Shown one piece after another: positions 49,339-54,846 of a stretch of DNA of 64,000 bases. The stretch covers positions 1 through 64,000 of the forward strand of contig CACDMX010000005.1 of the NCBI GenBank assembly GCA_902554035.1, read 5' to 3'. Positions within the stretch are counted from its first letter, which is position 1. Each line of letters opens with the position of its first letter. Origin of the DNA: an uncultured Pelagibacteraceae bacterium. GTDB taxonomy: Bacteria; Pseudomonadota; Alphaproteobacteria; Pelagibacterales; Pelagibacteraceae. Position numbers and translations under genes: made by a program. The notes under the pieces were generated by a model. It saw nothing but the letters and a program-made list of their open reading frames with translations, ran no database searches and was not told where the DNA came from.

Positions 49339-50430
49339 ATGAAATTTTTAAATATTCATAAACAAGATAAAAAAATATTCAAAAATTTAATAAATGATTT
49401 TAAAAAAAATATTAACAAAGGTGATTTCATATTAGGAAAGTCTGTTGAAACTTTTGAAAGAGAATTTGCTAGTTATTGTGGCTCTAAATATGCAATAGGT
49501 TGTGGCAATGGTACAGATGCACTAACTATTGCTCTAAAAGCTTTGAATCTTCCTAATAAATCGGAAGTTATTATTCCTGCTATGACATACTGCTCAACAG
49601 CATTTGCTGTTATTAATGCAAATTTAAAACCTGTTCTTGCTGATATTGATTTTATGACACCGACAATTTCTTTAAATCAAATAAAAAAAAAAATAAATCC
49701 TAGAACAAAAGTTATAATTCCTGTACATCTATATGGCTCATCAGCCAATATAAATGGTATAAAGAAAATAATTAATAAAAAAAAAATTAAGGTTATTGAT
49801 GACTGTGCTCAAGCTCATGGCGCTTATGATGACTCAATCAAAAATAAAAAAAGAATAGGATCTACTAGTGATATCTCTTGTTTTAGTTTTTATCCAGGTA
49901 AAAATTTAGGTGCGTATGGAGATGCGGGTATAATAACAACTAATAGTAAAATTTATAACAAAATTATTCGCAAAATGAGAAATTTAGGATCTGAAAAAAA
50001 ATTTATTCATGAATATATTGGTTTAAATAGTAGACTTGATACTCTGCAAGCTTCAATCTTAACTAAAAAACTCAATTTTTTAGACAAAAATAATTTAAAA
50101 AGAAAAAATATTGCTTATTTTTATGACAAACAAATTAATAGTTCCAAAATTGAAAAATTGAAATATTCTAATACTTGCGTATACCATCAATATGTAATTT
50201 TAACAAAATATAGAAAAAAACTTATTAATTTGTTTAAAAAGAAAAAAATTCCCTTTGGCTTTCATTACCCATATGCCTTAAATCAAATACATGCTTTGAG
50301 AAAATTTTTTAAAAATCAAAAATACCCTAACGCTGAAAAAATTGCTTCACAAGGTATTAGTCTTCCAATAGATCCTAATTTAAGAAATAAGGATTTAAGA
50401 AAAGTAGTTAAAGTAATCAATTCTTTTTGA
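49339..50430 (+). CDS. DegT/DnrJ/EryC1/StrS-type sugar aminotransferase
   Basis: A 363-residue PLP enzyme of the sugar aminotransferase group. The N-terminal substrate loop is GDFILGKSVETFEREFASYCG, the cofactor region GCGNGTDALTIALKAL, and the Lys that binds PLP is in SFYPGKNLGAYGDAG. It aminates a keto sugar nucleotide, plausibly the product of the Gfo/Idh/MocA enzyme upstream. Its start lies one base after the preceding stop, in the same run of plus-strand genes. Confidence 0.92.
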   Translation: MKFLNIHKQDKKIFKNLINDFKKNINKGDFILGKSVETFEREFASYCGSKYAIGCGNGTDALTIALKALNLPNKSEVIIPAMTYCSTAFAVINANLKPVLADIDFMTPTISLNQIKKKINPRTKVIIPVHLYGSSANINGIKKIINKKKIKVIDDCAQAHGAYDDSIKNKKRIGSTSDISCFSFYPGKNLGAYGDAGIITTNSKIYNKIIRKMRNLGSEKKFIHEYIGLNSRLDTLQASILTKKLNFLDKNNLKRKNIAYFYDKQINSSKIEKLKYSNTCVYHQYVILTKYRKKLINLFKKKKIPFGFHYPYALNQIHALRKFFKNQKYPNAEKIASQGISLPIDPNLRNKDLRKVVKVINSF

Positions 50431-50439
50431 AAAAAAATT

Positions 50440-51474
50440 TTGAAAAAAAATATTTTAATTTTTAAAAATGACGCTGTTGGTGATTTAGTGCAAAGTCTTG
50501 ATGCAATAAACAATATTGTTATCAATAATAAAGGACACAATATTATTATTTATTTATCAGAAAGAAGTAAAAATTTTGATTTTTTGTTTGACCGTCAAAA
50601 AATAAAAATTTTAAATATAAATTACGATTTATCTTTACTAGAAAAATTTAAGATTATATATCAACTATTAATAACTAATACTAAAGCTGTATATATTTTA
50701 ACACCAAAAAACTTTTATTTTTATTTACCTCTAATCTTTAAAAATATCAAATTTTATGCTTTATGTGTAAATTCAATTAACAATTATAAGAGACCCGGAA
50801 ACTTTTTCAGAAAGTATTTACATAAATTTGTAGTTAATGAGAGAGACAAAATAACAAAAAGAGAATCTACCATGGAAATACAAAGACAATTAACAAGAGA
50901 AAATAAATCTGATGAGAGATATAAAATAGGATTAATACCTAAGTTTAACTATGATAATTTTATAAATGTAAAAAACTATATTTACTTTCATCTAAAAATA
51001 TCAAATTTTAATAAACTAGGGTGGGGCATAACTGAACTGAAAATGATATTTGAAGAATTTTTAAAATATAAAAAAAAAGTAATCTTCACAAGAGACATAG
51101 AGAAATTAGATGCTGAAAATGATTATAAAAGTATTTTTAATGTAGTTGATTTCAATACAAAGGATAAAATACTTAATAATACAAATATATACCTTTATGA
51201 TAATATTAAAGGTAGCGATCTTTATAATGTAATAAGAAATGCAGATAAAGTAGTTTCATTTCATGGTATGATGACTAACTTAGCTTCAATAGAAAAAAAA
51301 CCCGTCTTAGATTTATTTTACTGCAATATAAAAACACTTGAAGATTTTAGAAGATATAAAAATGCTTTGTATGAATTTAAGCCAAATTATAAGAATTATG
51401 ATTTTATAGTACCAAGTAAAAATATAAAAAAAACAATTAATAAAATGCAATTCTTTCTCAAAAAAGACTTATGA
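50440..51474 (+). CDS. Glycosyltransferase, GT9 (heptosyltransferase)-like
   Basis: A 344-residue protein starting with a TTG codon: KKNILIFKNDAVGDLVQSLDAI is the GT9-type N terminus (ILIxKxxxxGDxV). The second half has VVSFHGMMTNLASIEKKPVLDLF, the donor-binding segment that corresponds to DSGLxH in heptosyltransferases but with FHGMM in place of it. It likely adds a sugar to the lipopolysaccharide core. No ATG lies upstream in frame that would keep the conserved start. It overlaps the next gene by four bases. Confidence 0.75.
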   Translation: MKKNILIFKNDAVGDLVQSLDAINNIVINNKGHNIIIYLSERSKNFDFLFDRQKIKILNINYDLSLLEKFKIIYQLLITNTKAVYILTPKNFYFYLPLIFKNIKFYALCVNSINNYKRPGNFFRKYLHKFVVNERDKITKRESTMEIQRQLTRENKSDERYKIGLIPKFNYDNFINVKNYIYFHLKISNFNKLGWGITELKMIFEEFLKYKKKVIFTRDIEKLDAENDYKSIFNVVDFNTKDKILNNTNIYLYDNIKGSDLYNVIRNADKVVSFHGMMTNLASIEKKPVLDLFYCNIKTLEDFRRYKNALYEFKPNYKNYDFIVPSKNIKKTINKMQFFLKKDL

Positions 51475-52412
51475 AAAAAAAAATAATTGTACGAATTTCC
51501 AATGAAATAGGGAATCAGTTATTTATGTATGCTTCAAGCTATGCAATTTCAAAAAAGCTTAATAGGTTACTTTACCTGGATAATGAAACAGCTTTTACAT
51601 CGAGAAAAAATATCAGTGCCTATGGCTTAAATAATTTTATGATTAGCGGTATAATCGCTGGTAAAAAAGATAAATTCTTAGGCGTTATAGGCTATTTAAA
51701 AAGAAAAATATTAAAAAAAATTAATTTAATTCTTAGTAAAAAAATTTTTTATGAAGAACCTAAAAATAAAAAAAAAATAACAAAATATTCAGATCAAATT
51801 TTTAAGATGAATTTTTCGAACAATCTATATATAGAAGGATATTTTGAGACCGAAAAGTATTTTGATGATTTTAGGGAAAATATTTTAAAAGAATTCTCTT
51901 TTTTGGATGTTGATAAATATATTAAATCACCTTTTTATAACTATCTTAATAAAAAAAATTCAGTATCTATATGTTTACGACAAAATAGATATATTGAAGG
52001 AAAAAATAAAAATAATAAAGTGAATCAAGAAAAATCAGATAATTTTAAATTAGAACAAATTAAATTTATTAACAAATCAATTAAATATATTGAGAATAAT
52101 GTACCTAAACCAAAATTTTATCTATGGTCAAACGATTTTGATAATATTGATATGTCATTGTTTTGTTCTGGTGTGACAAAAATAAAACACAGTGGTGATA
52201 TTTTAAGTGGTATCGATAAAAGATCACTTGATTTATTTCTTATTTCTCAATGTAATCATCATATTGTAATACCATCGTCTTTTAATTGGTGGGGAGCATG
52301 GCTGTCACAAAAAAAAAACAAAATTATATGTAGACCTAATGATGATTTTTTTACTGATTTTAAAGTAAATAATCTAGATTTTTGGCCACCTAGTTGGAAG
52401 GAAATATCATGA
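51471..52412 (+). CDS. Alpha-1,2-fucosyltransferase-like glycosyltransferase (GT11)
   Basis: A 313-residue protein with the GT11 layout: IIVRISNEIGNQLFMYASSYAISKKL at the start, an intermediate EGYFETEKYFDDFRENIL, and SSFNWWGAWLSQKKNKII near the end. The HxRxxD donor motif is changed to SICLRQNRYIEG: Arg is kept, His and Asp are not. It would add fucose or a related deoxy sugar to a surface glycan if active. It overlaps the following methyltransferase by 19 bases. Confidence 0.85.
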   Translation: MKKKIIVRISNEIGNQLFMYASSYAISKKLNRLLYLDNETAFTSRKNISAYGLNNFMISGIIAGKKDKFLGVIGYLKRKILKKINLILSKKIFYEEPKNKKKITKYSDQIFKMNFSNNLYIEGYFETEKYFDDFRENILKEFSFLDVDKYIKSPFYNYLNKKNSVSICLRQNRYIEGKNKNNKVNQEKSDNFKLEQIKFINKSIKYIENNVPKPKFYLWSNDFDNIDMSLFCSGVTKIKHSGDILSGIDKRSLDLFLISQCNHHIVIPSSFNWWGAWLSQKKNKIICRPNDDFFTDFKVNNLDFWPPSWKEIS

Positions 52413-53092
52413 GTTTGATTGAAATAGGAAAAAAATATCCATCTAGCAAAAATATTTCAGGTTTTATTCAATTATATGAAAAATATTTTTCCTCTTTAAG
52501 AGACTCAAAAATAAATATTTTAGAAATAGGAATAGAAAATGGTGATAGTTTGCGTATTTGGCGTGAGTATTTCTCTAAAGCAAATATTTGCGGCGTTGAT
52601 ATCGATAAAAAAAATTTTAAAATAGACAATGTTGATATTCAACATGGAGACCAATCAAATAATGTTTTCTTATTATCTCTAATTAATATTTATAAAAATT
52701 TCGATATTATTATTGATGATGGAAGTCATCAAGCAAAACACATAATTTCTTCTTTCAATTTTCTATTTCCTTATTTAAATGATAACGGTATTTATATAAT
52801 CGAAGATCTTCAGACATCTTACTTTCCGAGATATGGTGGCTCAAGAATTAATCTTAATAAAAAACAATCTTCTATGAATTTTGTTAAATCTTTAGCTGAC
52901 TCAATCAATTATGAAAAAAACAATCGTCCTTTTTTTAAAAAAAATAAATTTGATGGATTAATTAAATCTATTCATTTTCATCAAAATATAGCTTTTATTT
53001 ATAAAGGACAAAGTATAAAATATTTTTATAATCAAGATTTTAAAGAAACTTTATCAGATAAAATAAAAAAATTTTTATCTTATTTTTTTTAA
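52394..53092 (+). CDS. SAM-dependent methyltransferase (CmcI-like, class I)
   Basis: A 232-residue class I methyltransferase. Motif I is ILEIGIENGDSLRIWREYF, with GVDIDKK for the adenosine-binding acid; FDIIIDDGSHQAKHIISSF gives the metal-binding Asp pair and NGIYIIEDLQTSYFP the later motif. The closest resemblance is to CmcI and to sugar O-methyltransferases of deoxysugar pathways. In the island it most likely methylates a glycan residue. It ends four bases into the recombinase gene on the other strand. Confidence 0.85.
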   Translation: MEGNIMSLIEIGKKYPSSKNISGFIQLYEKYFSSLRDSKINILEIGIENGDSLRIWREYFSKANICGVDIDKKNFKIDNVDIQHGDQSNNVFLLSLINIYKNFDIIIDDGSHQAKHIISSFNFLFPYLNDNGIYIIEDLQTSYFPRYGGSRINLNKKQSSMNFVKSLADSINYEKNNRPFFKKNKFDGLIKSIHFHQNIAFIYKGQSIKYFYNQDFKETLSDKIKKFLSYFF

Positions 53093-54042
53093 AATTTTAT
53101 TTTATTTAAAGCGTTATTTTTAAATATATTTGCTTCTCTAATATATCTTCTGACCATTTGTGTTGTTTTATGACCTGTCATTGCCATAATGCTTCTTTCA
53201 TCTGCCCCTGACTCAGCAGCTACTGTTGCAAAACCTGATCTTAAACTATGACCTGAAAAATTTTTATTTTCAATTCCCGCTAAATTCAAATATTCTTTAA
53301 TTAACAAAACTACTGATTGATCTGTTAATCTATTCTCAGTCAAAGTTGACCCTTTTGTAAATCTTCTAAAAATTGGCCCAGATTTTATTTTAGATAGTTC
53401 TAGCCATTTTTGTAAATTTACTACCGGACAATAAATTTCATTATTAAAGTAGGGCAGTCCTTTTATCATGCCTTCGCCGAATTGATCTGTTTTGGATCTT
53501 TTAATAATGATTTTAAGGCCTTCAGGAACAAACTCTATGTCTTCATGATCAATTAAAACAAGTTCTGTTCGTCTAAATCCCCCTCCAAAGCCAACTAAAA
53601 TTATAGTTTTATCCCTTTGTTTTTTAATTTCATCAATTTTTTGTTCATTAATCACATTAATTATTGATTTTAAATGATTGATTAATATAGGTTTTTTTCC
53701 TTTTTGAATACTGCCTTTTACTCTCTTTATGCCCATCAGATTTTCAATAATGATTGGATGTTTTGTATCTAAATAATGACCTTTTAATTTGTGAACCATA
53801 CTTATTGAAACTAATCTTCTTCTTAAAGTGCTAATTTTTGAATTTTTAGAAAGATGGGTTAGGTATAAAGAAACTGTTTTAGGTTCTGATGGCAATGAAT
53901 TTAGTCCATGCTTTGCACAAAAAGTCCCGAAGTCCTTAAAATCAGATTTATAGGCCCTTAAAGTGTTATTAGCTTTAGATGACTTCAGGTTATTTAAAGT
54001 TGCCTCATGAAGCGATTTTAAGTCTGTTGTTAACTCATTCAT
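53089..54042 (-). CDS. Tyrosine recombinase/integrase
   Basis: A 317-residue tyrosine recombinase. The N-terminal SAM-like core-binding domain spans about residues 8-110 (NNTLRAYKSDFKDFGTFCAKHG). The catalytic residues are Arg157 in GGFRRTELVLI, Lys184 in KRSKTDQ, His265 and Arg268 in SGHSLRSGFA, His291 in MTGHKTT and the nucleophile Tyr300 in MVRRYIREAN. All six are intact. It lies at the right edge of the surface island. Its ATG abuts a perfect inverted repeat with no Shine-Dalgarno. It is not a typical XerC/D, which are shorter at the N terminus. Confidence 0.92.
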   Translation of the reverse strand: MNELTTDLKSLHEATLNNLKSSKANNTLRAYKSDFKDFGTFCAKHGLNSLPSEPKTVSLYLTHLSKNSKISTLRRRLVSISMVHKLKGHYLDTKHPIIIENLMGIKRVKGSIQKGKKPILINHLKSIINVINEQKIDEIKKQRDKTIILVGFGGGFRRTELVLIDHEDIEFVPEGLKIIIKRSKTDQFGEGMIKGLPYFNNEIYCPVVNLQKWLELSKIKSGPIFRRFTKGSTLTENRLTDQSVVLLIKEYLNLAGIENKNFSGHSLRSGFATVAAESGADERSIMAMTGHKTTQMVRRYIREANIFKNNALNKIKF

Positions 54043-54083
54043 ATTATTACTATTGATAACAATTAATTATCAATAGTAATAAT
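54043..54083. repeat. 17-bp inverted repeat with 7-bp spacer beside the recombinase
   Basis: The arm ATTATTACTATTGATAA (54043-54059) and its exact reverse complement (54067-54083) flank the 7-base spacer CAATTAA. The left arm begins at the base next to the recombinase start codon. Long arms around an asymmetric 6-8 bp spacer are the form of tyrosine-recombinase core sites such as loxP and FRT, so this may be the binding and crossover site. It may equally be an operator, or a hairpin in the recombinase messenger that limits translation. Confidence 0.85.
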
Positions 54084-54127
54084 ATAACTCATTTAATAAG
54101 TCAAGCAAATAAGTTAAAGGAAATTAG

Positions 54128-54292
54128 ATGCCAAAATATGTTTTAATAGGACTAATAGTAATAATTGGTTTGTTTTTAGCAATGAATATCTGGTCAAAAC
54201 TTACTGAAAAAACTAAAAACAGAACTATTGCAGCAATTTTTGGAGTGATAATGATTGCCTTCATTGTGCTAATTGCCCTACTAATATTCTGA
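54128..54292 (+). CDS. 54-residue two-helix membrane protein
   Basis: A short gene encoding a protein with two hydrophobic helices (about residues 4-20, YVLIGLIVIIGLFLAMN, and 34-54, TIAAIFGVIMIAFIVLIALLIF) joined by a polar loop with Lys and Thr. AAAGGA is placed 7 bases before the ATG, one of the better ribosome-binding sites here. The codon pattern matches its neighbours. It is divergent from the recombinase, with the inverted repeat between them. No family is recognised; it looks like the small hydrophobic proteins of toxin or holin type, but that is only shape. Confidence 0.7.
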   Translation: MPKYVLIGLIVIIGLFLAMNIWSKLTEKTKNRTIAAIFGVIMIAFIVLIALLIF

Positions 54293-54379
54293 AAGTTATT
54301 AACATAATTCACATACCATCTGAAAAAACACTTAAAAAGTGATATATACAACTAAATCATTTTGATAATGTTTAATTAA

Positions 54380-54560
54380 TTAAGGGGCAACCCTTAACTG
54401 GCCGATTGGGGAAAAACCGAGAGGTTCAAGCCCAGGGGGCAGAAAGTCTTGCGGAGTAGCGCTAAAATCGTAAGGCGGAAGGCATGGCGGTAGCGCATAC
54501 AACGACGTGCCAAAACTACTGTTCTTTGTGCCCTAAAAAGCACAAGGAAACAGGGTTTCT
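54380..54560 (+). ncRNA. G+C-rich structured RNA of unknown class
   Basis: By hand count 73 of the 130 bases at 54381-54510 are G or C (56%), against roughly 27% around it. Predicted hairpins: TTAAGGG-GCAA-CCCTTAA (54380-54397, GNRA loop); GCC-TTGGG-AACC-GAGA-GGTT-CCCAG-GGC (54401-54440, GNRA loop, internal loops GAAA/CAAG); CTTGCG/CGTAAG (54448-54453 with 54469-54474); and a stem of CTGTT plus CTTTGTGC with GCACAAGG plus AACAG (54519-54553). GCGCTA (54459-54464) in the third loop can pair with TAGCGC (54491-54496), a pseudoknot. Strand is assumed plus. It lies just before the MGMT gene and could be its leader or a separate RNA. I could not match it to tmRNA, RNase P, SRP or 6S RNA. Confidence 0.7.
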
Positions 54561-54570
54561 CAAAATTTCT

Positions 54571-54846
54571 ATGATTCTTAAAGGTACCAAATTTCAGTTA
54601 AAGGTCTGGAAATACTTAAAAACAATACCAAAAGGTAGAGTTAAAACCTATAAGCAGGTTGCTTTAGCTATTAATATGCCAAAAGCTTCTCGTGCTGTAG
54701 CTAATGCGTGTGCTAAAAACCCTTATGCTCCAAAGATACCTTGTCATAGAGTGATAAGATCAGATGGCACTTTAGGAGGTTATTCTGCTCCGGGAGGCAT
54801 AAAAAAAAAGAAAAAAATACTAAAAAAAGAAGGTTTTTTAGCTTAA
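54571..54846 (+). CDS. Minimal O6-alkylguanine-DNA alkyltransferase domain
   Basis: A 91-residue protein consisting only of the MGMT C-terminal domain: FQLKVWKYLKTIPKGRVKTYKQVA, the winged helix NMPKASRAVANACAKNP, and IPCHRVIRSDGTLGGYS with the alkyl-acceptor Cys. It therefore has the acceptor residue that alkyltransferase-like proteins lack. The regulatory N-terminal domain of Ogt/Ada is absent. It would remove alkyl groups from guanine. An in-frame ATG at 54484 exists, but that would place 29 residues inside the structured RNA and does not match the family, so 54571 is preferred. Confidence 0.82.
   Translation: MILKGTKFQLKVWKYLKTIPKGRVKTYKQVALAINMPKASRAVANACAKNPYAPKIPCHRVIRSDGTLGGYSAPGGIKKKKKILKKEGFLA

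What the first reader, a model, noticed from the sequence alone, without database searches (positions are those of the whole stretch)
54380..54560. Unassigned G+C-rich structured RNA beside the recombinase
About 56% G+C by hand count at 54381-54510 in an otherwise roughly 27% G+C region, two hairpins with GNRA tetraloops, a symmetrical internal loop (GAAA/CAAG) and a loop-to-distal pairing GCGCTA/TAGCGC. This is the signature of a selected structured RNA in an AT-rich genome. It does not read as tmRNA, RNase P RNA, SRP RNA or 6S RNA. It may be a stand-alone RNA or the 5' leader of the MGMT-domain gene that starts 11 bases later.
Basis: seen in the sequence. Interest (0 to 1): 0.86.

Follow-up and report, generated by a model that had tools for sequence, protein, structure and literature searches.

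The report
IMES-2, a SAR11 stand-alone structured RNA
The G+C-rich structured RNA is real and belongs to a catalogued but functionally unknown marine RNA family (IMES-2); comparison across SAR11 bacteria shows it is a free-standing RNA gene with its own promoter region and terminator, not part of the neighbouring DNA-repair gene or recombinase.

Summary
Bases 54373-54513 (+) match Rfam RF02035, IMES-2, end to end at 159.5 bits (gathering score 54.7). The family is known; I found no known function. It occurs once per genome in about half of SAR11 genomes (200 of 397 in the order), in six genera of one family, and not in other Alphaproteobacteria sampled. The RNA lies between a Xer-like recombinase and an MGMT gene only in the window's genus; elsewhere it sits 3' of mnmA or in two other places. 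Everywhere it keeps an upstream element (DnaA-box-like sites, a conserved -35 block, a -10) and a terminator-like hairpin. It is therefore a stand-alone gene of about 185 nt, probably acting in trans, not an MGMT leader; recombinase-MGMT pairs without it exist. No 6S RNA (38 genomes) and no Hfq (31 genomes) was detected in SAR11, so Hfq-type antisense action is unlikely. Molecular function remains unknown.

The parts
54373..54513 (+). IMES-2 RNA core (Rfam RF02035, model positions 1-141): P1 (GCAA loop), P2 with 4x4 internal loop and GAGA loop, P3 and P4 with large kissing loops
   Evidence: cmscan 159.5 bits, E 6e-42; covariation in 81 sequences
54459..54464 (+). P3-loop side of the kissing interaction, GCGCUA
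   Evidence: pairs with the P4 loop; compensatory changes in other genera
54491..54496 (+). P4-loop side of the kissing interaction, UAGCGC
   Evidence: as above
54514..54560 (+). Terminator-like hairpin and short U-tract; with the core it defines a transcript of about 185 nt
   Evidence: z -4.3 here; a different hairpin plus T-run lies at the same place in other genera. The strict terminator scan did not call it in the window because the T-run is interrupted
54290..54376 (+). Upstream element conserved with IMES-2 in every genus
   Evidence: alignment A2; model R1 finds it at 49 bits here and at IMES-2 in all eight IMES-2-bearing genomes searched, with no comparable second site
54296..54313 (+). 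Tandem DnaA-box-like nonamers TTATTAACA and TAATTCACA
   Evidence: 56 diverged upstream sequences: 54 hold a + strand nonamer within one mismatch of TTATNCACA, against 5.5% in shuffles
54337..54345 (+). AAGTGATAT, conserved block at the -35 position
54364..54369 (+). GATAAT, likely -10
   Evidence: start site about 54373-54377, inferred
54571..54846 (+). Downstream neighbour, not part of the RNA gene: short MGMT/Ogt DNA-binding-domain protein with PCHR
   Evidence: Pfam PF01035; NCBIfam ogt superfamily. The earlier ATG at 54484 lies inside the RNA and is not conserved
53089..54042 (-). Upstream neighbour, not part of the RNA gene: Xer-like tyrosine recombinase
   Evidence: Pfam PF00589; XerD-type, below NCBIfam cut-offs

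Best explanation
This is IMES-2 (Rfam RF02035), a stand-alone non-coding RNA gene of SAR11 bacteria. Shown by comparison: it is a single-copy unit with its own conserved upstream element and 3' hairpin, and it folds into P1, P2 (with an internal loop) and two hairpins, P3 and P4, whose loops pair. Inferred: it is transcribed alone as about 185 nt, the P3-P4 kissing interaction holds a compact core whose invariant unpaired bases (the AAA between P2 and P3, the UAG segments of both loops, the AAC-G-AC of P4) bind a protein or a large RNA machine, and it acts in trans as a regulatory or ribonucleoprotein RNA. What it binds is not known; the 'acts in trans with a protein' step alone I would put at about 0.6.
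For: Identity: 159.5 bits over the full model. Structure. Autonomy: four unrelated neighbourhoods, the same upstream element in all, a terminator-like hairpin in all. One copy per genome wherever found at family threshold. Confined to one SAR11 family: no hit in 385 genomes drawn across the class apart from SAR11 ones, none in phage or plasmid records, none in viral contigs by exact pattern. Not a leader: 16 genomes have the recombinase-MGMT pair without it. Hfq not detected in 31 SAR11 genomes while 5 controls ring, which argues against Hfq-dependent base-pairing.
Against: No transcript data were available. No target, partner protein or phenotype is known. Many near-complete genomes of the same genus lack it even with lax filters and a broader model, so it is not essential in all SAR11. 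The terminator T-run in the window itself is weak. The step from 'autonomous RNA gene' to 'trans-acting RNA' is inference.
Confidence: 0.85

Rival explanations
1. It is a 5' leader or attenuator of the MGMT gene: the RNA folds or binds something and its terminator hairpin decides whether MGMT is transcribed.
For: In many loci of this genus the MGMT start codon follows the terminator T-run directly, so MGMT may depend on read-through.
Against: In other genera the RNA is followed by an oppositely oriented gene and no MGMT; in some loci of this genus another small ORF comes first (L008, L229); MGMT persists next to the recombinase without the RNA in 16 genomes.
Confidence: 0.06
2. It is a functional part of the recombinase locus, for example an attachment site or a cassette carried by it.
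For: In the genus nearly all copies lie beside the recombinase, and the interval between recombinase and MGMT holds variable small ORFs.
Against: Other genera and G066 carry it 3' of mnmA or elsewhere without the recombinase. On the recombinase tree, presence of the RNA is scattered like shuffled labels (15 changes, shuffled mean 14), while it clusters on the tree of the EamA gene on the other side (7 changes, shuffled mean 13, 0 of 500 shuffles as low).
Confidence: 0.05
3. It is the SAR11 counterpart of 6S RNA, binding RNA polymerase.
For: 6S RNA is not detected in 38 SAR11 genomes while E. coli, B. subtilis and Caulobacter controls ring; single-copy, stand-alone, independently terminated RNA.
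Against: Four hairpins with a kissing interaction, not one long rod with a central bubble; genomes without IMES-2 also lack 6S.
Confidence: 0.07
4. It is coding: the N-terminal part of a longer MGMT protein starting at 54484.
For: An ORF starts at 54484 inside the RNA and reads into MGMT.
Against: The frame holds stops in other genomes (8 of the first 30 listed) or is shifted (two pieces); the ATG is absent in other genera; MGMT in genomes without the RNA aligns only from residue 28-32 on.
Confidence: 0.01

Closest known systems
IMES-2 RNA motif, Rfam RF02035 (from memory: Weinberg et al. 2009, 'identified in marine environmental sequences')
   Same: Sequence and secondary structure over all 141 model positions, far above the curated cut-off
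   Different: Nothing in the core. This report adds, without claiming priority: host family and copy number, alternative loci, patchy absence in the genus, upstream element, terminator, and covariation for the P3-P4 loop pairing, which the Rfam model's structure line does not show (such lines cannot show pseudoknots, so it may be in the original description)
6S RNA, RF00013
   Same: Stand-alone RNA of about 185 nt; function could overlap
   Different: No covariance-model match, different architecture
IMES-1 RNA, RF02034
   Same: Named in the same marine series
   Different: No match over its cut-off in any of 38 SAR11 genomes; not the same host range here

Membership tests
IMES-2 (RF02035) | Covariance-model score over the curated gathering score | tested here: met
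   159.5 against 54.7 bits, positions 1-141 of 141
IMES-2 (RF02035) | Consensus helices kept through compensatory change | tested here: met
   94.4% of 3638 cells paired, 32 of 45 pairs with change on both sides
IMES-2 (RF02035) | Transcribed in the ocean as a small RNA | not testable with these tools
   no transcriptome data; the original papers are not in the held library
MGMT cis-leader | Conserved linkage to the downstream gene | tested here: not met
   other neighbourhoods; MGMT without the RNA
6S RNA (RF00013) | Match to the family model | tested here: not met
   no match in the region or in 38 genomes
tmRNA, RNase P RNA, SRP RNA | Match to the family models | tested here: not met
   cmscan against all 4227 families gives only IMES-2 at this place
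Hfq-dependent antisense sRNA | Hfq encoded by the host | tested here: not met
   PF17209 not found in 31 of 31 SAR11 genomes; controls ring

The most novel reading that the evidence does not exclude
IMES-2 is a SAR11-specific global regulatory RNA whose transcription is controlled by DnaA through the tandem boxes upstream, coupling a growth- or replication-state signal to a ribonucleoprotein in cells in which neither Hfq nor 6S RNA is detected.
Probability: 0.1. Interest if true: 0.75.

Novelty: already known. Interest (0 to 1): 0.36.

Why it matters
SAR11 is among the most abundant bacterial groups in the sea and has very few regulators. The family has had a name but, as far as I could find, no assigned function. 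Fixing its hosts, showing that it is an autonomous gene, giving its likely ends and promoter element, and showing sister genomes that naturally lack it at the same locus makes function testable by comparing natural plus and minus strains.

Tried and rejected
Divergent IMES-2 in genomes called negative: lax search and a broader model found only chance scores. Another gene sharing the upstream element: none at comparable score; second-best hits (E about 0.005) are as strong in positive as in negative genomes. IMES-1 in the same genomes: none over cut-off. Phage, plasmid or viral origin: no match. Origin of replication (because of the DnaA-like boxes): in complete genome G128 the RNA lies near the cumulative-skew maximum, so near the terminus, not the origin (sparse sampling). 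Coding extension of MGMT: rejected. Weak pntA and TtnuCD15 hits: far below their cut-offs. Literature on IMES function: none in the held library.

Full report
Observation. The stretch 54400-54519 has 55.8% G+C in surroundings of roughly 20-35%, and 54373-54520 folds better than all 200 shuffles.

Identity. Against all 4227 Rfam families the window gives one match here: IMES-2, RF02035, 159.5 bits, E 6e-42, model complete. With a permissive threshold only two weak chance hits are added.

Hosts. The window's genome has one copy. Among 121 relatives 35 have one, all in the window's genus. Among 397 genomes of the order 200 have one; in the at least 90% complete ones 75 of 151; 6 of 13 genera. Among 385 genomes spread over the class only SAR11 genomes of this family match. 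A pattern scan of named genomes returned contigs titled Pelagibacteraceae (taxonomy), and contig lengths there equal those of relatives searched here (for example 118,477 bases), so the window is from SAR11. Absence in one-contig genomes of the same genus holds with lax filters and with a model of my own that includes the diverged genera.

Structure. 81 distinct sequences from six genera were aligned with a covariance model. All helices are supported. The loop-loop helix is not in the Rfam structure line; its two sides change together: GCGCUA/UAGCGC here, GCACUA/UAGUGC in L134, GUACUA/UAGUAC in L135, GUGCUA/UAGCAC in L115, AGCACU/AGUGCU in the most distant genus. The P3 loop here is self-complementary (UAGCGCUA), but that palindrome is lost in L134 and L115 while the P3-P4 complementarity is kept, so P3-P4 pairing is the selected one; whether within or between molecules is open. 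Caveat: the alignment was fitted to the nested helices (not to the loop-loop helix), and counts include related sequences.

Neighbourhood. In the window's genus the order is recombinase (divergent), small variable ORFs, IMES-2, MGMT, EamA transporter. In genera g9, g10, g13 and in G066 of the window's own genus it follows mnmA and faces an oppositely oriented gene of about 230 codons; in g6 it lies between a nuclease-like and an SRAP-like gene, in g12 beside a YdiU/SelO-like gene (these gene names are from reading the translations, not from a family search). Sixteen genomes of the genus have the recombinase and MGMT with other small ORFs or little between them and no IMES-2. The RNA therefore travels as its own unit.

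Signals. Upstream, every genus keeps TTATCCMCA-N2-ATTCACAG at about -92 to -73 (with variation), a block around AAGTGATAC at the -35 position and TGATAT at -10. 54 of 56 diverged sequences hold a DnaA-box-like nonamer on the + strand within one mismatch (5.5% expected in shuffles; related sequences, so not independent). The element finds IMES-2 in all eight positive genomes searched and nothing comparable elsewhere. Downstream, different hairpins followed by T-runs stand at the same place in all genera. In the window the T-run is interrupted and the strict scan does not call a terminator.

Mechanism. Shown: autonomous, structured, single-copy, family-restricted, dispensable in some lineages. 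Inferred: separate transcription of about 185 nt; compact kissing-loop fold; trans action with a protein or RNA machine. Hfq is not detected in SAR11 and neither is 6S RNA, so neither standard route is available to lean on. The DnaA link is a sequence resemblance only.

Linkage. On the recombinase tree the presence of IMES-2 is scattered as shuffled labels are; on the EamA tree it is clustered. The recombinase allele thus reassorts against the RNA, and the RNA belongs to the stable MGMT-EamA side, at the edge of a sugar-gene region upstream of the recombinase. Both trees carry several poorly supported forks.

Verdict. A correct and careful observation of a known RNA family. The added value is the evidence for an autonomous gene, its promoter element and terminator, the covarying kissing loop, and natural plus and minus genomes.

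Noticed in passing
54043-54083, next to the recombinase start (54042): Inverted repeat ATTATTACTATTGATAA-CAATTAA-TTATCAATAGTAATAAT, dif-like. Its core GATAACNNTTAATTATC occurs once in 226 of 325 fetched loci, including nearly all that carry the recombinase. In G064 and G065, whose recombinases are about 62% identical, the arms read TTTCCGATAA/TTATCGGAAA. It looks like the recombinase's own core or operator site.
   Followed up: partly
53089-54042, and G128:C1 near 1.339 Mb: The Xer-like recombinase is conserved (mostly 86-92% identity) in 50 of 73 genomes of the genus, single-copy, and in G128 lies near the cumulative GC-skew maximum. A one-recombinase Xer/dif-like system at the terminus is possible; not tested.
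   Followed up: partly
54084-54300 and the same interval in L063-L078: The interval between recombinase and MGMT holds different small ORFs in different genomes (small membrane proteins, a GNAT-like acetyltransferase by eye), resembling a cassette spot.
   Followed up: no
54484-54846: Automatic gene calling would start MGMT at 54484 inside the RNA; the likely start is 54571.
   Followed up: yes
49339-53092: Sugar-aminotransferase, glycosyltransferase and methyltransferase genes end at the recombinase, like the edge of a SAR11 hypervariable cell-surface region (HVR2 of HTCC1062 also contains an integrase, PMC2217521).
   Followed up: no
G000 and 30 other SAR11 genomes: No Hfq (PF17209) and, in 38 genomes, no 6S RNA detected across the order, although controls ring.
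   Followed up: partly
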